From the IMG/VR virus record IMGVR_UViG_3300045911_000155, positions 1 through 64,000 of that record: a stretch of 64,000 nt of DNA; one strand, 5' to 3'. Origin of the DNA: a virus. Below, piece after piece: positions 4,865-62,700 of the stretch (the first letter of the stretch is position 1; every line of letters begins with the position of its first letter). The notes below the pieces were generated by a model. That model did no database searches. It had not been told where the DNA came from and was given only the letters and a program-made list of their open reading frames with translations. A program made the translations under genes and the position numbers.

Positions 4865-5361
4865 AATTTGAAGACCACTTTCGCATCCTGATCTATGACA
4901 AGCACACTCAGCGGATCGTGACGGTCTATCCGACCGATTCCCTTCTATCGCACCCGATCCCTTGGACCGGCGCGGTATTGCGCCAGTACGATCAGCGGAT
5001 CATGCAAGAGATCCAGTCCCGGCGAATGATGGTTCTCTGGCGCAACAAGGGCATCGAATACTTGCGGGTCCATGTAGATGAACTAGCCTTTCATGTCGGA
5101 TATGATGTCCGGCACAAAAGGCTAGTTCGATTCAAACAGCCTAGCAATCCTTCTGTTCACACTCCGGTGGATTCGGATCGGGCTTCTCTTCCGGTTCCGG
5201 GTCCGGCCCGGATTCATTCCGGCCTTCTTTCATTCCCAACGGTGCCGGGAACGGAGGAACAACCGGGGATTCGGGCGATTTCGGACTTGATGTCGATCCC
5301 TTGCCCGAATTCCAGTGAATGTTCGGAGCATCACCTGACAGTGTTCCGCCGGATGCCATGA
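4861..5361 (+). CDS. Uncertain open frame after the VWA gene
   Basis: The frame reads LLKFEDHFRILIYDKH and continues about 75 residues that look protein-like, but it has only TTG/CTG starts and its last 220 nt are antisense to the gp5-like gene. It may be a separate small gene or the true C-terminus of the VWA protein after a missing G in the run at 4838-4854. The portion beyond about 5085 runs through a perfect inverted repeat and is doubtful. Confidence 0.3.
   Translation: MKFEDHFRILIYDKHTQRIVTVYPTDSLLSHPIPWTGAVLRQYDQRIMQEIQSRRMMVLWRNKGIEYLRVHVDELAFHVGYDVRHKRLVRFKQPSNPSVHTPVDSDRASLPVPGPARIHSGLLSFPTVPGTEEQPGIRAISDLMSIPCPNSSECSEHHLTVFRRMP
5080..5128. repeat. Perfect 12 bp inverted repeat, possible bidirectional terminator
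   Basis: GAACTAGCCTTT pairs exactly with AAAGGCTAGTTC across a 25 nt loop that contains a smaller CGGA/TCCG pair. It sits 12 nt beyond the stop of the minus-strand gp5-like gene, where a terminator would be expected, but it lacks a clear T-tract. Confidence 0.55.
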
Positions 5362-6550
5362 TGAAGGTGCCACCGGCGGATTGCTTGATCTGCCCGCCCG
5401 CGATGTCAAACATTGCTCCACCGGAGTGCCGGTCGCTGATACCGCCAGCATGCATGCTGTGATTGCCGCCAACTTCGATCTTGTCGAAACCGCCAATCTT
5501 CTCAGTCTGACTGCCGTCGATGTCAATGTACCGGTTCCCGTGGATCTTCTCCGTGTAGTCGCCTTGTACGTGTACGTTCATGTTGCCGTCCACCTGAATG
5601 TTCAGATCGTCCCGGCAATAGATGTTCATCTCTCCGTCGCTGGTGATATTCGTCGCGTTCTGGAAGTGAACATATGCGTTCTCCATGACCGTGATGAATA
5701 CCTTCCCCACAATCTTCAATTGCATGTCGCCTTCCTTGCCCGGCGCGTTCGTGATTTCCGCGTAGCTCCCCGACTTGTGATAGATGTGGATGCGCTCCGC
5801 GTTCGGCGTGTCATCGAATTCGACGATGTGGCCGGACTCTGACTCGAACACGTGATTGTAGGGATACCGGGCCGCATACGTTGGTTCCGGCTCAACCCAC
5901 TTCCGGGCCGGGCGCGGGTGGACGAACGCAATCGGGATGCCGCCAAACTCTTTCGGACGGCCCACGTCGCGCTGACGCTTGCGGACGCCCATGATCGTGT
6001 CGTCCACCTTCTCCACGATTGCAAGGCGGTTGATGTCGTTCTCTCCGACGACAGCGCCCCACGGGTGCTTCTGTCGCGGGTACAGATCCGGGATGGACTC
6101 TTGTTTCAGTTGTGCGCCGGTGCCGTCGTTCGGGTAGTAGCGATAACGGATCTTCCGGGGTGCCTGTGGCAGTTCATGGAACGGTAAGGATGGGTCAAAG
6201 AAGCCAATGCAAGGCTGTGGAGCCTCTTCCGGGATGCCGTGGATAGTTCCGAATACCGTCAGGTCTTGCGCCGCGTGTGAGTCACGCATGAAGCCGTAAA
6301 CCCATGTTCCTTCGACCGGCCCCATCGGGCTGTGACCAAGGCCATTCATGGCGGCGTTCCACGGTGCGGGCTGATAGACGTAGGCCCAATGAAGTTCGCA
6401 TGTGGGAATGAGTTGTTTGTCTTCCGTGTGCATGCCAAGCACGCGCACGCGAAGCCGTCCCAACTTCATCGGGTCCCGGCGATCTTCGACAACACCGACC
6501 CACCAGACAAAACCTTCGAAGCCCATCAAATGCTGATCGTGTACTTTCAC
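5141..6550 (-). CDS. gp5: gp5-like baseplate central spike/hub protein
   Basis: A 469-residue protein with a T4 gp5/VgrG-type OB fold at the N-terminus (WWVGVVEDRRDPMKLGRLRV) and a C-terminal repetitive region of short D/N/G-rich strands (about residues 270-420) typical of the trimeric beta-helix spike. The tail end is Pro/Glu-rich. No lysozyme domain is visible, unlike T4 gp5; the separate M23 peptidase at 8488 may fill that role. The start is GTG at 6550, 5 nt after a CTAAGTAC late box. It would form the membrane-piercing needle capped by the PAAR protein at 9985. Confidence 0.9.
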   Translation of the reverse strand: MKVHDQHLMGFEGFVWWVGVVEDRRDPMKLGRLRVRVLGMHTEDKQLIPTCELHWAYVYQPAPWNAAMNGLGHSPMGPVEGTWVYGFMRDSHAAQDLTVFGTIHGIPEEAPQPCIGFFDPSLPFHELPQAPRKIRYRYYPNDGTGAQLKQESIPDLYPRQKHPWGAVVGENDINRLAIVEKVDDTIMGVRKRQRDVGRPKEFGGIPIAFVHPRPARKWVEPEPTYAARYPYNHVFESESGHIVEFDDTPNAERIHIYHKSGSYAEITNAPGKEGDMQLKIVGKVFITVMENAYVHFQNATNITSDGEMNIYCRDDLNIQVDGNMNVHVQGDYTEKIHGNRYIDIDGSQTEKIGGFDKIEVGGNHSMHAGGISDRHSGGAMFDIAGGQIKQSAGGTFIMASGGTLSGDAPNIHWNSGKGSTSSPKSPESPVVPPFPAPLGMKEGRNESGPDPEPEEKPDPNPPECEQKDC

Positions 6551-6555
6551 GATCA

Positions 6556-6563
6556 GTACTTAG
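6556..6563 (-). promoter_or_regulatory. Late promoter box CTAAGTAC
   Basis: T4-like late box variant 5 nt before the GTG start of the gp5-like gene, implying an almost leaderless mRNA. Confidence 0.6.
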
Positions 6564-8474: not shown

Positions 8475-8482
8475 CTAAATAT
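8475..8482 (+). promoter_or_regulatory. Late promoter box CTAAATAT
   Basis: 5 nt before the ATG of the M23 peptidase gene. Confidence 0.65.
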
Positions 8483-8487
8483 GCTTC

Positions 8488-8958
8488 ATGGCACTTTTTC
8501 CTTTACGGCAACGGCCAAAACTCGACTACAAGACACCGCCGCGTTCTTTTGGTTGCGCCCGCGACAAAGGAAGACGCAAGCATGCCGGTTGTGATCTGTA
8601 TGCGTCCATTGGAACGGAAGTGTTGGCGGTGGAAGACGGAGAGATCATCCAGCCGGTGTACTTCTTCTACCTTGGCACGTATGCCCTAGAAGTCCGCCAT
8701 GCGTCCGGCGTCGTTGTTCGGTATGGAGAGATCCAGAAGAACACTCCGAAGCCGTGGAAGGCCGGGGACAAGGTGACCGCCGGGGAAGTGCTTGGATACA
8801 TCGGACAACTGCAAGGCTTGCCCGTCGCCATGCTCCATTTCGAATTGTTCGACGGTTCCGCGTCGGGGCCGCTGACGGTGCGGTCGGAAGGCGGATTCCA
8901 GCGGCGATCTGATTTGATGGACCCAACTGCGTTTCTGGATGATTGTGTTGTGATCTAA
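8488..8958 (+). CDS. M23-family peptidase (LytM-like)
   Basis: A 156-residue protein with the M23 metallopeptidase signature: the zinc-binding HAGCDLY near residue 32 and the C-terminal LHFELF near residue 116, around a core containing GEIIQPV and GEVLGYIGQL. The family cleaves peptide cross-links of peptidoglycan. Location between spike and tail-fibre genes suggests a tail-associated wall-degrading enzyme used during entry, which fits the absence of a lysozyme domain in the gp5-like protein; this placement is inference. Confidence 0.85.
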   Translation: MALFPLRQRPKLDYKTPPRSFGCARDKGRRKHAGCDLYASIGTEVLAVEDGEIIQPVYFFYLGTYALEVRHASGVVVRYGEIQKNTPKPWKAGDKVTAGEVLGYIGQLQGLPVAMLHFELFDGSASGPLTVRSEGGFQRRSDLMDPTAFLDDCVVI

Positions 8959-8962
8959 GTAG
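8955..8962 (+). promoter_or_regulatory. Late promoter box CTAAGTAG
   Basis: 5 nt before the start of the tail-fibre gene at 8968; it overlaps the stop codon of the peptidase gene. Confidence 0.55.
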
Positions 8963-8967
8963 TTTGC

Positions 8968-9988
8968 ATGGCATCGATCACGACGATTCAAGGGACAGAT
9001 TCCCTACGCGATAGCCGCGCGGTCATCAATACAAACTTCACCAACATCAACAATGAGTTGACGACCATCACCGGGTTGGGTGGCATTCCCGGCCCGACAG
9101 GTCCGGCGGGTCCGACTGGACCGATGGGAACCGGCATCACGTGGCGAAGTACGTGGAACAGCGCTACCGCATACGTGGCGAACGATGCTGTGACTTATGG
9201 TGGTCAGGCATGGGTGGCAATAGCTTCGAGCACGAATGTGACGCCCGGAACCGATGCATTGAAGTGGCAATCCTACATCAATTTCTCTTCGTTAGGTTCG
9301 GGTGCGATTTTGTCCGGGATAAACAGCATCGGCACCAGCGCAACCGACCGCTTCGAATATCGGATATCTTCCGACTGATGGCCCGTATCTGCAACATTCG
9401 GACGGTGCTGGATGGAATTACTTTGGGACGATGCGAAAGATGGTTCCGTTGAATGACAGTTCGTGGTCGTGGGTGAATCAAGGTGGAGCGGCCATGACAA
9501 CTGTTGGCAGTACCAAAATGATGACCGTTCCCGCGAATACAGGTGACAGTCTTCGTTGTCGTCTGCGCACTGTTCCGTCGCCGCCATACACGATCACGGC
9601 GATGGTTCTCAATGACTACTATCCAGCCAACTACTATCACACAGGAATTGTGCTCTATGACAGTGGCACGGGACGGCTACAGACATGGGGATATGGTTAC
9701 AACAGTGGCATGGCGCAAGCGGTTTATAACTGGTCGAACACGACGACGTATAATTCTACTCCCGGCGGCGCGCTGCAAATCCACACACCGTATACATTTT
9801 TTCGTGTGGTTGATGACGGCACCAATTTGACATTCTCTTCATCGACTCACGGGTTTGATTTTTCGAATGTCTTTTTCACGACCACACGGGCGGCGTGGAT
9901 CGGAACAATCACTGATATTGGTCTGATGTCTGACTGCAACAACAACCGACCGGGGAACATGCTGGTGTTGCATTGGGAAGTCACTTAA
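8968..9988 (+). CDS. Tail-fibre-like protein with collagen-like repeat, frame-disrupted
   Basis: The N-terminal frame (8968-9378) encodes a coiled region, GPTGPAGPTGPMG collagen-type triplets and a WNSATAYVANDAVTYGG module like carbohydrate-binding modules in fibres. It stops at TGA 9376-9378. The continuation is in the next frame, readable upstream of ATG 9431 as YLPTDGPYLQHSDGAGWNYF and on to 9988. A +1 change (one extra base or two missing) near 9345-9376 restores one protein of about 340 residues. The C-terminal domain resembles those at 28802 and 35971. It probably binds the host surface. Confidence 0.75.
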
Positions 9989-10280: not shown

Positions 10281-10288
10281 GAATTTAG
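10281..10288 (-). promoter_or_regulatory. Late promoter box CTAAATTC
   Basis: 5 nt before the PAAR gene start; divergent from the box at 10297. Confidence 0.5.
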
Positions 10289-11689: not shown

Positions 11690-11697
11690 GTATGTAG
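11690..11697 (-). promoter_or_regulatory. Late promoter-like box CTACATAC
   Basis: 7 nt before the ATG at 11682; one base away from CTAAATAC. Confidence 0.45.
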
Positions 11698-14742: not shown

Positions 14743-15024
14743 GGCGGTTCCTGTATTCAGCGACCGTGATATCCACGACGGTCATGCCTTTGATCTGTTC
14801 TTTCAGGTGGGTTTCCGGCGACCACCAGCATTCACATCCCACACGATGTCGCCGTTGTCCAGCTTGATTTTGGGGTTGGGTGTGGTCACGGGACCAAACG
14901 GGCCGATGATTTCCGGCGGCGGAATCTCTTCGCCTTCATATGTGCCGAAGCCGAATAGCTTGACGGTATTGTTGTCTGCCGATGCGACAGCACCGACGCG
15001 ATCACCTTTTTGTGGAGCGGGCAT
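14735..15024 (-). CDS. Conserved small phage protein, frame-disrupted
   Basis: The frame from ATG 15024 ends early at 14803 after VWDVNAGGRRK. Adding one G to the GGG run at 14838-14840 converts this to VWGCECWWSPETHLKEQ and extends the protein to a stop at 14735 (about 96 residues), which matches the CECWW end seen in related phage proteins. The disruption is therefore most likely a homopolymer error. Function unknown. Confidence 0.65.
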
Positions 15025-15047: not shown

Positions 15048-15889
15048 TTATGCAAGTTCGATGGTATCGTCATCGTTGCGGCTGAGAAGATCCGCCGGGA
15101 CAATTCCAAGTGTCAACACTGATCCGGCGGGCCGTTCGTGGCCGTAGACGACAATCGGTTCCGTGATCTTGACATGCATTTCCAGACCGGCGAAGAATCC
15201 GTGGTCGTCCAATTGGCGTCCGCCGTCGATCACACCCTTGTACGGTACACCGTGATATGTGCCAGTGACATCCAGTCCCCGGCGCAACTTCCGACCAAGC
15301 TCCGCGATCCGCTTGTTGTCGGCAAGGTAGTCGTCAAGAGCCTTCTGTGCTTTCGCGGCATTGGCTTTCGGCACAAGGTACTTGACCCCGACACTCACGA
15401 TGCGGAACTTCTTCAATTGGGCGCGGAAGTAGTTGGTGAAGTACTTGTGATTTGGTTCACCGCTGACCGGCGTCTTCAGTTCGACGTGATCGGCAAACGC
15501 GCCCATCTTTTCCAGTTCTTTCCGCTCATTGTCACTTCCGCCGTGCATTTGCAATACCAGATCGGCATCGGCCAAGGCATCGGCGGATTCTTCCGGTGCA
15601 TACCATCTCTTCTTGCCGAAGTCCCATACACCACCCGCCTTTTTGATGGCGTCCTTCTTGCCATAGGTGTCGCTACCGGTGACCGGGTAGAGCGGCGTCA
15701 GTCCCATCTTCTTCACAAGCGGAGCCTTTGTCAACGGGGCGAACCATGCTTTCGACATTCCATCGAACTTGGCACCCATCCGCTTGAGTTCGTCTTTCTT
15801 TTCGAATGAGTTGCCGCCAACTTTTACGTCGTAGAAGGAAGCGGCGCGGGTTGGATGGACTCCCGGAGGAACTGGAGGAAATTTGCCAT
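15048..15889 (-). CDS. Two-copy DUF5710-like protein with capsid-targeting-like N-terminus, frame-disrupted
   Basis: ATG 15889 begins MANFLQFLRES, a capsid-targeting-like motif with cleavage site L-R-E, 8 nt after a CTAAATAC late box. This frame stops at 15824; the long downstream frame is restored by one C in the CCC run near 15853. It contains two repeats of the form KKDELKRMGAKFDGMSKAWF and KKDAIKKAGGVWDFGKKRWY, the DUF5710-type pattern found in DNA-processing proteins. The C-terminal half is unassigned. About 281 residues when restored. Confidence 0.65.
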
Positions 15890-15897
15890 GACGCTTC

Positions 15898-15905
15898 GTA
15901 TTTAG
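15898..15905 (-). promoter_or_regulatory. Late promoter box CTAAATAC
   Basis: 8 nt before ATG 15889. Confidence 0.7.
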
Positions 15906-17451: not shown

Positions 17452-17540
17452 TGGTGGCGGAAAGGGGACTCGAACCCCTACGGTATTGCTACCACATGAC
17501 TCTCATTCATGCGCGGCTACCAAGATTACGCCATTCCGCC
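17452..17540 (-). tRNA. tRNA-Leu(GAG)
   Basis: Acceptor GGCGGAA/TTCCGCC, anticodon stem CATGA/TCATG with loop ATGAGAG (anticodon GAG), a class II variable arm and T-arm AGGGG-TTCGAGT-CCCCT. CCA follows the discriminator A. Confidence 0.9.
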
Positions 17541-17547
17541 AAAGTGT

Positions 17548-17634
17548 TGGTCGCGGGAGTGGGACTCGAACCCACACGACATTTCTGCCACATGCTTCTG
17601 AGACATGCGTGGCTACCAATTACACCATCCCGCG
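17548..17634 (-). tRNA. tRNA-Leu(CAG)
   Basis: Acceptor CGCGGGA/TCCCGCG, anticodon loop CTCAGAA (CAG), long variable arm, T-arm with TTCGAGT loop, CCA present. Confidence 0.9.
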
Positions 17635-17727
17635 AAAAAAGACCAGAACTTTCATCATCCACCGTCAAGCGGTTTGCCCGCCGCAATTGTTTTGGGCCTT
17701 GGAATTAAACCAAGCGCTCTGATCTTT

Positions 17728-17812
17728 TGGTGGCCGAAGAGAGACTTGAACTCTCACGCCCGAAGGCACCGGGTTTTGAATCCGGGGCGTCTGCCAATTC
17801 CGCCATTCGGCC
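17728..17812 (-). tRNA. tRNA-Leu(CAA)
   Basis: Acceptor GGCCGAA/TTCGGCC, loop TTCAAAA (CAA) with one mismatched closing pair, long variable arm, T-loop TTCAAGT, CCA present. The 93 nt between this and the previous tRNA hold a T-arm-like hairpin (CTTGG-TTTAATT-CCAAG) but no complete tRNA. Confidence 0.88.
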
Positions 17813-17912
17813 ATTTGTGGAAGCCTTTCACTTCACTTGACCATTCTGGATCGCCAGTATGATTACCCCGCCGATGAACGTTTCACTAGTACCGTGCATC
17901 GGAACATCGATT

Positions 17913-18000
17913 TGGTAGCGGGAGTGGGACTCGAACCCACACGACATTTCTGCCACTAATTTTTGAGACTAGCGCGGCTACCGGATTACGCCATCCCGCC
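17913..18000 (-). tRNA. tRNA-Leu(CAA), second copy
   Basis: Acceptor GGCGGGA/TCCCGCT, anticodon loop CTCAAAA (CAA), class II variable arm nearly identical to that of the CAG tRNA at 17548, T-loop TTCGAGT, CCA present. Probably a duplicate whose anticodon has changed. Confidence 0.87.
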
Positions 18001-18004
18001 ATGT

Positions 18005-18220
18005 TCAACGATTTATCACACCCCATGAAGCTCCGCAAGGTGAAGTGGGGAAGCCGCACCCTTCGAGTTGATCCCGGACCCATTCAGCTTTCTGTTCGTT
18101 CGTCATTTTGCTGAAGTGATCTGAGTATTCTTTGCTGGTGACCAGCATCGTGATCTGAAAACAGATATCAACCAACTTCTGTTCCCGTCCTTCAGGTGTC
18201 AGTTCCGTTCGTGCGGCCAT
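18005..18220 (-). CDS. Small protein inside the tRNA array, 71 aa
   Basis: Starts MAARTELTPEGREQK at 18220 with TACAAT 6 nt upstream (leaderless pattern). The rest is helical with KMTNEQKAEWVRDQLEG. It ends 5 nt before the tRNA at 17913-18000. Function unknown. Confidence 0.7.
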   Translation of the reverse strand: MAARTELTPEGREQKLVDICFQITMLVTSKEYSDHFSKMTNEQKAEWVRDQLEGCGFPTSPCGASWGVINR

Positions 18221-18234
18221 GACCCTATTGTAGT

Positions 18235-18318
18235 TGGTGGGCGCGAAGGGATTCGAACCCTTACGCCGAAAGGCACTAGTTCCTAAGACTAGCGTGTCTG
18301 CCGTTCCACCACGCGCCC
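18235..18318 (-). tRNA. tRNA-Leu(UAG)
   Basis: Acceptor GGGCGCG/CGCGCCC, anticodon stem CTAGT/ACTAG with loop CTTAGGA (UAG), class II variable arm, T-loop TTCGAAT, CCA present. The 160 nt beyond it up to 18480 show no gene. Confidence 0.9.
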
Positions 18319-18479
18319 GTGGTCGGATCTGATGGACGCTACCCATCTCCCATGTGTCCCCGATTTGGACACCGCGACCGCTTGTCGCTAAGACCCGTTA
18401 AAACCGTAAGCAAATTGAGTAGGCCACGGAATGTTTTTCAACCATAGAAAGATAACCATGACCAGTTCGGCTTACAGTT

Positions 18480-18557
18480 TGGTCTAGGTGGCGGGAATCG
18501 AACCCGCTTGAATGTCCTGTTCCCGAAACAGGCGGCTGACCTTTAGCCCACACCTAG
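18480..18557 (-). tRNA. tRNA-Pro(CGG)
   Basis: Acceptor CTAGGTG/CACCTAG, D-stem GGC/GCC, anticodon stem CCTGT/ACAGG with loop TTCGGGA (CGG), T-loop TTCGATT, CCA present. Confidence 0.85.
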
Positions 18558-18580
18558 ATGAATCGTATCACAGCAAATAG

Positions 18581-18669
18581 TGGCAACGGATAGCGGGATT
18601 TGAACCCGCAGTGGCTTTTTAGGCCGACTGTTTTTGGACAGTTGTGTTTACCATTTCACGATAACCGTT
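18581..18669 (-). tRNA. tRNA-like gene, isotype unclear
   Basis: T-arm GCGGG-TTCAAAT-CCCGC and an acceptor-like pairing are present with a long variable arm (GGC-N7-GCC). The anticodon arm ACTG/CAGT has an 8 nt loop TCCAAAAA with no clear anticodon, and one extra base lies before CCA. Likely a decayed class II tRNA. Confidence 0.5.
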
Positions 18670-18692
18670 ATCCGTCCGGCTGTGACACGATT

Positions 18693-18769
18693 TGGTCGGG
18701 AAGGCGGGAATCGAACCCGCTCGATGTCCTGTCCCCCAGACAGGCGGCTCACCTTTAGCCCACTTCCCG
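18693..18769 (-). tRNA. tRNA-Pro(GGG)
   Basis: Acceptor CGGGAAG/CTTCCCG, anticodon stem CCTGT/ACAGG with loop CTGGGGG (GGG), T-loop TTCGATT, CCA present. Very similar to the neighbouring Pro tRNA at 18480. Confidence 0.87.
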
Positions 18770-18858
18770 AATGCGCGGACAAACATCGTCCGCAAAACTC
18801 GTTTCTCTCATTCAGTTGTCAAATACCAGTTGCTCTCATCGTCTGCACGATGTCGGCT

Positions 18859-18934
18859 TGGTCGGGGACACGGGACTCGAACCCGCATCTTCCTGTACCC
18901 AAAACAGGTGGCTTACCAATTAGCCAAATCCCCG
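18859..18934 (-). tRNA. tRNA-Pro(UGG)
   Basis: Acceptor CGGGGAT/GTCCCCG, anticodon stem CCTGT/ACAGG with loop TTTGGGT (UGG), T-loop TTCGAGT, CCA present. Confidence 0.88.
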
Positions 18935-18940
18935 AAAGAT

Positions 18941-19017
18941 TGGTCGGGCATGCAGGATTTGAACCTGCGACTTCACCGTCCCGAACGGTGCGCTCTACCA
19001 AGCTGAGCCAATGCCCG
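18941..19017 (-). tRNA. tRNA-Pro(CGG), second copy
   Basis: Acceptor CGGGCAT/ATGCCCG, D-arm GCTC/GAGC, anticodon stem CACCG/CGGTG with loop TTCGGGA (CGG), T-loop TTCAAAT, CCA present. First tRNA of the minus-strand array. Confidence 0.92.
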
Positions 19018-20159: not shown

Positions 20160-20167
20160 GTAAATAG
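20160..20167 (+). promoter_or_regulatory. Late promoter box GTAAATAG
   Basis: 18 nt before the kinase gene start at 20186. Confidence 0.5.
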
Positions 20168-24632: not shown

Positions 24633-24640
24633 GTATTTAT
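24633..24640 (-). promoter_or_regulatory. Late promoter box ATAAATAC
   Basis: 4 nt before the nucleotidyltransferase start codon. Confidence 0.7.
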
Positions 24641-32040: not shown

Positions 32041-32048
32041 CTATTTAC
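32041..32048 (-). promoter_or_regulatory. Late promoter box GTAAATAG
   Basis: 6 nt before ATG 32034. Confidence 0.65.
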
Positions 32049-34154: not shown

Positions 34155-34162
34155 GTATTTAG
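34155..34162 (-). promoter_or_regulatory. Late promoter box CTAAATAC
   Basis: 9 nt before ATG 34145; it overlaps the stop codon of the upstream gene. Confidence 0.7.
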
Positions 34163-35960: not shown

Positions 35961-35970
35961 TATCCGGTAG

Positions 35971-37557
35971 TTAGGTCAGCTTCAAATACTGAACGTCGAT
36001 GGACTCTGAGTTTTGGACATAGACGAACAGATTGATGACGTTCAGTCCGCTGATCGTGTGCGGCTCCACCCATGTGGTGCCATTGATTTGCCAACCACAG
36101 GTGATAACAGAACCGGAGCGAACGAACCGCAACTTGAACAGGTTGCCGGGCGGTGGTGAACCCGATGGTCCAATGTTGGTGTTGTTGTAGAAGTTCCAAT
36201 TGAACCATCCAGTGTTATTCCAGTAGTGATCTTGTGTCCACATGGTAGTTTCCGCTGGTGATACGAATTCCCCACACCGAAAGCGCTCCCACGCCGCCGC
36301 TGTCGTCGCGGAATCCAATGCCGACGAAATTTGCCAACGCTGTATTCGGCACAAATTGCACTTCGAAATTGAACGCTCCCGATCCACCCAATCCACCGGG
36401 CCGGTACAGACCGATGGGATAGTTCTGCGTTACGCTTCCGGTGTACCCGAAAGTGAAATCGTTGCCATTGTCGGTCATCGTGTAGTTGGCGTCCGTAGGA
36501 GTTACCACGTAAGACGACAGAGCCGATGCCGATGGAATGTTTGGATTGCGGTACGGAATCGAAGTGCCGTATTGTCCAGTCACATACCAGTTATCACCAT
36601 CTGATTGAATTTCGCGATAGGCATATTGGGTGTTCAGGTTGACTGTCGTTTCACCGTCGATGGTGTCCGGGGCGACGGGTGTGATGTAGACGGTGTTAGT
36701 TGTGCCTTTCACCTTGGCAATGTACTTCTTGCCGGTGTAAGAAGCGGCGGGCGGCAAATTGACAATGACGTGATCCGTTGTTTGGTCGCAGACAATCGTG
36801 CCGTCTGTTGGCAGAACAGTGTATGGTGAGTTCGTGTGGTTGATCGTGACGATCTTGGAAGATTCACCAAGCGACATCAGATCCCAGGGGTCACGTCCGG
36901 GGCTTGATTGGTCGTGTTGCCCAAACACACATAGGACGATCCGTTGTAGGAAACCACATCATACGGCACATATGCGGTCGCATTTGACCAAACACCAAGC
37001 CAAGTGAACCCTTGACCATCGGCACCCGCCGCACCCGCCGGGCCTGTCGCACCGGTTGCACCGGTTGCACCAGTCTGCCCCTTGACGGCATAGAGGGTAG
37101 TTCCATCCGGCGTCAGGAACTCTTGCATCGTCACGGCATTGGCCGTTGTGTCTACTGCATTCCCGCCCACCACGTTGCCCGGCCATGCGAACGTATGCCC
37201 GCCCGCATTGTTCTGGACGATGAAGAAGGTGATTCGCTGCCCGGCGGTCAAGTTGCTGACCGTGCTCGAAGTCACGTTGCCGGTCAAGACGATGCGGAAT
37301 TGATTGCCTAGTGCTGCGTCAAATGTCGGAGTGGCGGAAAAGGTGACTGTCGTGACGTTCCCACTCACCCGCCCATTGAAAGTGTTGTACCCCGTCCACG
37401 TGTTGTTCCCCGTCCACGTGTTGTTCCCGGCAAGCTGTTCGGTGCCAAGTGTGCCGGTGACGGTGTGCGCTGCATTCCAGTTCGACGGTCGAATCTTCGT
37501 CGGGTCCGGGCCGTCCGGTTTGGCGGAAACGAAGGGGTGTGTGATTGACAGTGCCAT
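35971..37557 (-). CDS. Tail-fibre protein with collagen-like repeat, two frame disruptions
   Basis: Starts MALSITHPFVSAKPDGPD, the same module as in 32895. Then come GATGATGATGPAGAAGADG collagen-type triplets and a WSNATAYVPYDVVSYNG module, as in 8968. The first frame ends at 36877 in a GGG run (36883-36885, one G missing); the second ends at 36215 with a +1 change near 36250; the third ends at 35971 with a beta-sandwich-like domain. Restored length is about 528 residues. The second and third parts have internal ATGs and might be separate chains. Confidence 0.72.
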
Positions 37558-37564
37558 GACTGTC

Positions 37565-37572
37565 GTATTTAG
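37565..37572 (-). promoter_or_regulatory. Late promoter box CTAAATAC
   Basis: 7 nt before ATG 37557; divergent from a plus-strand TATAAT at 37578-37583. Confidence 0.72.
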
Positions 37573-43286: not shown

Positions 43287-43336
43287 TAGTCTTCTCCTTT
43301 GATTTGATGGGTTCCGTGCCACTCTAAACAGTTGGC

Positions 43337-43639: not shown

Positions 43640-43658
43640 ACCACCCTATATACTCAGC

Positions 43659-46816: not shown

Positions 46817-46824
46817 GTATTTAC
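46817..46824 (-). promoter_or_regulatory. Late promoter box GTAAATAC
   Basis: 4 nt before the GTG start of the SpeD-like gene; it overlaps the end of the upstream gene region. Confidence 0.65.
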
Positions 46825-47865: not shown

Positions 47866-47873
47866 CTATTTAT
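47866..47873 (-). promoter_or_regulatory. Late promoter box ATAAATAG
   Basis: 6 nt before ATG 47859; divergent from the box at 47895. Confidence 0.72.
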
Positions 47874-47894: not shown

Positions 47895-47902
47895 GTAAAT
47901 AG
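47895..47902 (+). promoter_or_regulatory. Late promoter box GTAAATAG
   Basis: 5 nt before ATG 47908. Confidence 0.68.
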
Positions 47903-52147: not shown

Positions 52148-52155
52148 GTACTTAG
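52148..52155 (-). promoter_or_regulatory. Late promoter box CTAAGTAC
   Basis: 4 nt before ATG 52143, just after the preceding terminator. Confidence 0.65.
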
Positions 52156-61203: not shown

Positions 61204-61211
61204 CTATTTAG
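61204..61211 (-). promoter_or_regulatory. Late promoter box CTAAATAG
   Basis: Contains the TAA stop of the scaffold gene; drives the capsid gene with a 30 nt leader and a real ribosome binding site, unlike most late genes here. Confidence 0.7.
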
Positions 61212-62692: not shown

Positions 62693-62700
62693 GTATTTAG
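62693..62700 (-). promoter_or_regulatory. Late promoter box CTAAATAC
   Basis: Contains the TAA stop of the protease gene; 33 nt before the scaffold ATG, with TAGGAGAACAAACAA as ribosome binding site. Confidence 0.7.

What the first reader, a model, noticed from the sequence alone, without database searches (positions are those of the whole stretch)
15887..15905. Late promoter boxes abutting start codons: leaderless late mRNAs
CTAAATAC or close variants lie 4-9 nt before the start codon of at least sixteen genes (gp5-like, M23 peptidase, PAAR, fibres at 8968, 32895 and 35971, gp48-like, SpeD-like, DUF900, glycosyltransferase and others). In T4 the start point is about 5-7 nt after the TAAATA box, so transcription would begin at or next to the start codon. 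Only the scaffold and capsid genes clearly keep a leader with a ribosome binding site.
Basis: partly seen in the sequence, partly recalled or inferred. Interest (0 to 1): 0.72.

Follow-up and report, generated by a model that had tools for sequence, protein, structure and literature searches.

The report
Leaderless late mRNAs in T4-type phages
In this T4-like phage and in many marine relatives, the late promoter sits so close to the start codon that the messenger RNA should begin at, or within a few bases of, the first codon, with no room for a ribosome-binding site; only the most heavily used virion genes clearly keep one.

Summary
In the window, 9 exact TAAATA boxes and about 9 one-mismatch boxes end 5-11 nt before a start codon, most of them conserved in a relative ~84% identical (G001). 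In G001, TAAATA is the most enriched of all hexamers at 5-10 nt before ATG (22 of 55 occurrences, P 5e-31), with none closer than 5. T4's start point is the 6th nt after the box, and 180 leader-bearing late promoters of cultured T4-like phages show a purine signal there, so predicted leaders are 0-5 nt. Capsid and scaffold genes, and outside the window sheath and tube genes, keep AGGAG leaders.

The pattern is wider. In 78 marine T4-like loci and in phages HTVC008M and G002, the gap spikes at exactly 5 (51 cases against 1 at each neighbour; SD-like leader 0/51), so +1 would be the A of AUG. T4, Syn9, S-PM2, phiN3 and DLP6 lack the spike. gp3 is often leaderless (25/63 loci), gp23 never (0/78). 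Some early genes look leaderless too.

Caveats: nothing has been 5'-end mapped, the host is unknown, and the gene at the given coordinates is frameshifted in this record. Leaderless late mRNAs are known in other phages (phiYS40); I found none described for the T4 superfamily.

The parts
15898..15905 (-). late box CTAAATAC of the reported site, 9 nt (TAAATA to ATG) before the start codon
   Evidence: region identical in G001
15887..15889 (-). ATG of the reported gene (DUF5710-like); frame broken by a 7-bp deletion in this record
6557..6562 (-). late box TAAGTA, gap 6 to GTG at 6550 (gp5 baseplate hub/lysozyme, 5141-6550)
8476..8481 (+). late box TAAATA, gap 6 to ATG 8488 (M23 peptidase)
8956..8961 (+). 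late box TAAGTA, gap 6 to ATG 8968 (tail-fibre-like, CBM5/12)
10282..10287 (-). late box TAAATT, gap 6 to ATG 10275 (PAAR spike tip)
11691..11696 (-). late box TACATA, gap 8 to ATG 11682
14754..14759 (-). late box TGAATA, gap 11 to ATG 14742 (weak; box not compared in G001)
24634..24639 (-). late box TAAATA, gap 5 to ATG 24628 (cytidylyltransferase-like); predicted exactly leaderless
32042..32047 (-). late box TAAATA, gap 7 (8 in G001) to ATG 32034 (phrog_2164)
34156..34161 (-). late box CTAAATAC, gap 10 to ATG 34145 (416 aa)
35968..35973 (-). late box TAACTA, gap 7 to ATG 35960
37566..37571 (-). late box CTAAATAC, gap 8 to ATG 37557 (tail-fibre-like)
43325..43330 (+). late-box variant TAAACA, gap 6 to ATG 43337
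43647..43652 (+). box variant TATATA, gap 6 to GTG 43659 (could also be a -10)
46818..46823 (-). late box GTAAATAC, gap 5 to GTG 46812 (SpeD-like)
47867..47872 (-). late box TAAATA, gap 7 to ATG 47859 (gp48 tube cap); divergent with the next box
47896..47901 (+). late box TAAATA, gap 6 to ATG 47908; only 48 bp lie between the two divergent starts
52149..52154 (-). late box TAAGTA, gap 5 to ATG 52143 (DUF900); G001 has TAAATA at gap 9 instead
61205..61210 (-). leadered late box, gap 31 with AGGAG SD, to ATG 61173 (gp23 major capsid)
62694..62699 (-). leadered late box, gap 34 with AGGAG SD, to ATG 62659 (gp22-like scaffold)
20161..20166 (+). late-type box, gap 19 to ATG 20186 (kinase-like)

Best explanation
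The boxes are T4-type late promoters read by RNA polymerase carrying the phage sigma gp55, held by the gp45 clamp. Transcription starts at the 6th or 7th nt after TAAATA, at a pyrimidine-purine step. For most late genes of this phage clade the box is placed so that the mRNA starts on the AUG/GUG or at most about 5 nt before it. These mRNAs have no Shine-Dalgarno site, so they must be initiated as leaderless or near-leaderless messages by recognition of the 5'-terminal start codon. A second class of late promoters sits 20-45 nt upstream with an AGGAG leader and drives the most abundant virion proteins (capsid, scaffold, sheath, tube). The same two-class layout occurs in marine T4-superfamily phages, where the leaderless class is set at exactly 5 nt. 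Shown from sequence: box position, conservation, lack of SD, start-codon identity, initiator signal, presence of gp55/gp45. Inferred: the actual 5' ends, leaderless initiation by the ribosome, and the link to protein dose.
For: Gaps of 5-10 with none at 0-4 in G000, G001, G006. TAAATA is the top hexamer of all at that distance. The T4 late box lies at -13 to -6, and Aeh1 uses CTAAATA (PMC1524935; PMC2988020). Purine peak (76%, A 57%) at the 6th nt after the box in 180 leader-type late promoters, and T/C (94%) before the ATG in 83 gap-5 genes. Spike of 51 at gap 5 in 78 marine loci (49 unique sequences, 39 of them under 90% alike to any other), SD-like leader 0/51 against 85/109 and 136/160 for longer gaps. 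11 HTVC008M gap-5 starts equal the deposited CDS starts. G000/G001 conservation of boxes and third-position substitution bias from codon 2 on. The DUF900 gene keeps a near box although its position moved (gap 5 against 9). Divergent starts with 48 bp between them both carry near boxes. The portal start matches its family's N-terminus (profile 3 to residue 3). Early sigma-70 promoters of G001 are bimodal too: gap 6-7 or 17. gp55 and gp45 present in G001.
Against: No 5'-end data exist for any of these phages here. Gaps of 7-10 predict leaders of 1-5 nt, which are not strictly leaderless and whose translation is unproven. Start codons of G000/G001 come from a home-made caller plus conservation. 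The host is unknown, so its capacity for leaderless translation is untested. gp55 was found in G001 only, not in the window's own (partial) record. Abundance classes rest on T4 knowledge, not on data for this phage.
Confidence: 0.82

Rival explanations
1. The boxes are true late promoters, but the first gene is translated from longer upstream transcripts; the near box only serves genes further downstream.
For: Late genes lie in clusters, and some boxes follow other genes closely (the reported box directly follows a tRNA-Ile gene).
Against: None of the 28 near-box genes with ATG starts has an SD match of 5 or more bases. Divergent pairs (47859/47908) leave no room for another promoter without reading antisense through a gene. 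The exact-5 spike would have no reason.
Confidence: 0.08
2. The start codons are misassigned; real starts lie downstream behind a normal leader.
For: In-frame starts exist downstream in several genes, and the caller chose a later one for some.
Against: Codon-position substitution bias (0.058/0.022/0.204) starts at codon 2. The portal aligns with its family from residue 3, and gp5 aligns with family N-termini from residues 5-8. HTVC008M deposited starts agree.
Confidence: 0.05
3. The near boxes are AT-rich translation enhancers or chance A/T sequence, not promoters.
For: Some bacteria use A/T-rich tracts before ATG instead of SD sites (general knowledge).
Against: Only the hexamer in this orientation is enriched; the reverse complement gives none at gaps 5-10 in G000/G001. 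The same hexamer occurs 20-45 nt upstream of SD-bearing late genes. The genome is 53-55% GC. In marine phages the distance is fixed to one nucleotide.
Confidence: 0.05

Closest known systems
T4 late promoters (gp55/gp33/gp45 system)
   Same: TAAATA core, late virion genes, gp55 and clamp genes present; CTAAATA form as in Aeromonas phage Aeh1 (PMC1524935)
   Different: in T4 the boxes lie mostly 12-40 nt upstream and there is no gap-5 peak
Thermus phage phiYS40 leaderless middle/late mRNAs (described in PMC3594737)
   Same: a large phage whose later transcripts lack leaders
   Different: not a T4-type late promoter, as far as known; here leaderless and SD-leadered late genes coexist, split by gene
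-10 motif adjacent to ORFs in Deinococcus-Thermus (PMC12340547)
   Same: promoter element 6-7 bp before the ORF giving leaderless mRNA, coexisting with GGAG genes; matches the sigma-70 class seen in G001
   Different: cellular sigma-70 genes; here mainly a phage late sigma factor
Leaderless mRNAs of mycobacteria and single phage genes such as lambda cI (own knowledge)
   Same: 5'-terminal AUG/GUG translated without SD
   Different: isolated host or phage genes, not a late regulon

Membership tests
T4-type late promoter | TAAATA-core 8-bp box with no -35 element needed | tested here: met
   core conserved G000/G001; absence of a -35 element not tested separately
T4-type late promoter | lies upstream of virion/late genes | tested here: met
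   capsid, scaffold, portal, terminase, sheath, tube, gp48, gp5, PAAR, fibres
T4-type late promoter | phage encodes gp55 and sliding clamp gp45 | tested here: met
   in G001; not in the 80-kb window record, which is a fragment; gp33 not tested
T4-type late promoter | start point 6th nt after the box | tested here: inconclusive
   indirect: purine signal at nt 6 in isolates, at nt 6-7 in this clade; no mapping
Leaderless mRNA | 5' end at or within a few nt of the start codon | tested here: inconclusive
   predicted leader 0-5 nt from gap; not measured
Leaderless mRNA | no Shine-Dalgarno site | tested here: met
   0 of 28 with 5 or more matching bases (5 have 4); 0/51 in marine gap-5 genes
Leaderless mRNA | translated from the 5'-terminal start codon | not testable with these tools
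   needs toeprinting or N-terminal proteomics
T4 superfamily | T4-like gp23, gp20, gp17, gp18, gp19, gp21 | tested here: met

The most novel reading that the evidence does not exclude
Across much of the non-enteric T4 superfamily, late genes are split into two translational classes by promoter placement: low-copy virion and accessory genes are expressed from exactly leaderless late mRNAs, and high-copy structural genes from SD-leadered ones, so that the distance from the late box to the start codon sets protein dose. The window clade extends leaderless expression to early sigma-70 genes.
Probability: 0.55. Interest if true: 0.78.

Novelty: new variant of a known kind. Interest (0 to 1): 0.64.

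Why it matters
Late gene expression of T4-like phages is taught from T4 in E. coli, where late mRNAs carry leaders with ribosome-binding sites. If marine and other T4-like phages, including phages of SAR11, make leaderless late mRNAs, then gene finders and promoter annotation for them need changing, and start codons can be fixed from the late box. Host translation of leaderless mRNA becomes a factor in infection. The alternation of gp3 between two discrete layouts in related phages is a natural experiment on how promoter spacing sets protein dose.

Tried and rejected
Megablast of the first 25 kb against phage records: no relative beyond a tRNA match. Search for ribosomal proteins S21 and S1 and for IF3 in the clade as a phage-made adaptation: none found; S21 only in HTVC008M. 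Host guess from the CCA-adding enzyme in bacterial genomes: no homologue. Portal orthologues L194-L270: almost none has a TAAATA box at a promoter distance, and a different upstream motif is shared, so they do not inform the gap. G006 turned out to be the same virus as G001 (99.997% identity over 158 kb), so it is not an independent witness. Shared-composition control hexamers are partly contaminated because ATAAAT overlaps TATAAATA; and the reverse-complement control were used instead. Literature searches for leaderless late mRNAs of T4-like phages found none in this open-access library; a paper on the Syn9 transcriptome was not held.

Full report
WHAT THE WINDOW IS. The window is 64 kb of an 80,560-bp virus record. 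It encodes T4-family capsid, scaffold and prohead protease, and the rest of the record encodes portal, terminase, sheath and tube, so it is a T4-superfamily myovirus fragment. A syntenic relative about 84% identical, G001 (224,490 bp), supplies the missing late-transcription genes: gp55, gp45, gp44 and gp62. G006 is the same virus as G001 and is not counted as independent. The nearest cultured phages by capsid share about 55-59% identity and infect SAR11, Methylophilales, Stenotrophomonas and cyanobacteria. The host is unknown.

THE OBSERVATION. At 15898-15905 (-) lies CTAAATAC, followed by GAAGCGTC and ATG. 'Gap' below means the number of bases between the last A of TAAATA and the start codon. 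In T4, TATAAATA spans -13 to -6 (PMC1524935; PMC2988020), so +1 is the 6th base after the box and gap 5 means no leader. In G000 and G001 the exact boxes fall at gaps 5-10 (7 and 21 genes with ATG starts) or at gaps of about 16-47, many of these in front of SD-type leaders. None fall at gaps 0-4 apart from one GTG at gap 1 that I take to be spurious. TAAATA is the most enriched of all hexamers 5-10 nt before ATG: 22 of its 55 occurrences in G001, P = 5e-31, ahead of the SD hexamers. The reverse complement shows no such signal. About 18 genes of the window carry such a box when one mismatch is allowed, most of them conserved in G001.

A BROKEN GENE AT THE GIVEN COORDINATES. In this record the frame that starts at 15889 stops after 21 codons because of a 7-bp deletion relative to G001, where the gene is intact (282 aa). 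The box, the ATG and the 40 nt upstream are identical in both. The gene is DUF5710-like, not gp5. gp5 is the 469-aa gene with a GTG start at 6550, gap 6.

ARE THE START CODONS RIGHT? In 15 orthologous pairs, substitutions in codons 2-16 fall at 5.8%, 2.2% and 20.4% of first, second and third positions, so coding begins directly after the box-adjacent start. The portal aligns to its family from residue 3 at profile position 3. gp5 aligns to families from residues 5-8. In HTVC008M, 11 box-adjacent starts (gap 5) that could be compared all equal the deposited CDS starts.

WHERE DOES TRANSCRIPTION START? In 180 late promoters with leaders from cultured T4-like phages, the 6th base after the box is A in 57% and a purine in 76%, above its neighbours. 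In 83 gap-5 genes the base before the ATG is a pyrimidine in 94%, the usual -1/+1 preference of RNA polymerase (own knowledge). In the window clade the pyrimidine-purine step falls mostly at bases 6/7, which gives predicted leaders of 0 nt for gaps 5-6 and about 1-5 nt for gaps 7-10 (read by eye).

A WIDER PATTERN. In 78 marine-type loci carrying gp23, the gap has a spike of 51 at exactly 5, with 1 at gap 4 and 1 at gap 6. 49 of the sequences are unique and 39 have no neighbour above 90% identity. SD-like sequence is present in 0/51 of these leaders, against 85/109 at gaps 12-25 and 136/160 at gaps 26-44. HTVC008M has 12 such genes, G002 10, Mosig 6 and P-SSM2 4, while T4, Syn9, S-PM2, DLP6, phiN3 and part of KVP40 have no peak. 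The trait therefore belongs to some lineages and not others. That the 78 loci are marine is inferred from their kinship to cultured marine phages, not from sample records.

WHICH GENES. In those loci gp3 is leaderless in 25 of 63 (none with an SD) and mostly has a leader otherwise; gp23 is never leaderless (0/78, 73 with an SD-like site), nor is the sheath (0/15). Counting only promoters with their own box, high-copy genes have 0/76 and low-copy genes 28/85 at gap 5 (P = 1e-9). HTVC008M leaderless genes include gp2, gp3, gp4, gp25, gp29 and gp48. In the window clade the near-box genes are portal, terminase (GTG, gap 5), gp5, gp48, PAAR, M23 peptidase, fibres and enzymes, while capsid, scaffold, sheath and tube have boxes 31-44 nt away with AGGAG. 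That copy number explains the split is an inference from T4 stoichiometry (own knowledge).

EARLY GENES TOO. In G001, -10-like hexamers peak 6-8 nt before ATG (22, against 4 and 7 for control hexamers). With a good -35 at the right spacing the gaps are bimodal: 6-7 (9 cases) or 17 (8 cases), with almost nothing between. The second class has the TGGAGAGACGAC-type leader. The first class is what Deinococcus-Thermus uses for leaderless genes (PMC12340547). So in this clade near-leaderless expression seems to cover both promoter types, and its host probably translates such mRNAs well (inference). No phage-made S21, S1 or IF3 was found in the clade.

MECHANISM AND STATUS. Best reading: gp55 polymerase starts on or just before the start codon, and ribosomes initiate on the 5'-terminal codon without SD pairing. 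The promoter geometry is shown from sequence. The 5' ends, the mode of initiation and the dose effect are not shown. Leaderless late phage mRNAs are known for phiYS40 (PMC3594737), and T4-type late promoters are well known. Their exact placement on start codons was not found described for the T4 superfamily in the library searched, which lacks most subscription papers.

LIMITS. Gene starts in G000/G001 come from a home-made caller. The 78 loci were selected by capsid similarity and are mostly short. Hexamer P values treat sites as independent.

Noticed in passing
window 15889 down to about 15800 (-): Gene at the reported site has a 7-bp deletion after about 23 codons relative to G001, leaving a 21-codon frame: true decay or an assembly error.
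   Followed up: yes
G001 (loci L091-L102), window e.g. 23418, 24710, 38532: Early sigma-70 promoters (TTGACATATANGTC...) come in two spacings: -10 box 6-7 nt before ATG (leaderless) or 17 nt with a TGGAGAGACGAC leader.
   Followed up: partly
record 72367-74913 (L009:12367-14913): gp17 terminase is 848 aa with a LAGLIDADG homing-endonuclease domain, consistent with an intein; the G001 frame is 532 aa, consistent with its absence there. The start is GTG at gap 5.
   Followed up: partly
L194-L270, about 60 nt upstream of the portal gene: T4-like loci from another group lack TAAATA at promoter distance before the portal gene and many share a motif like TTATGTTT..TTGAATTGGAA about 25 nt before ATG: possibly a different late promoter or leader.
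   Followed up: no
window 17452-19017 (-): tRNA cluster dominated by five Leu and four Pro tRNAs.
   Followed up: no
L013-L090, gp3 genes: gp3 alternates between exactly leaderless (25/63) and leadered (12-25 nt) layouts among related phages, a natural spacing experiment.
   Followed up: partly
window 52143 versus G001 169929: DUF900 gene: the late box lies at gap 9 (TAAATA) in G001 and gap 5 (TAAGTA) in the window, so its position changed yet stayed adjacent to the start, suggesting selection on closeness.
   Followed up: yes
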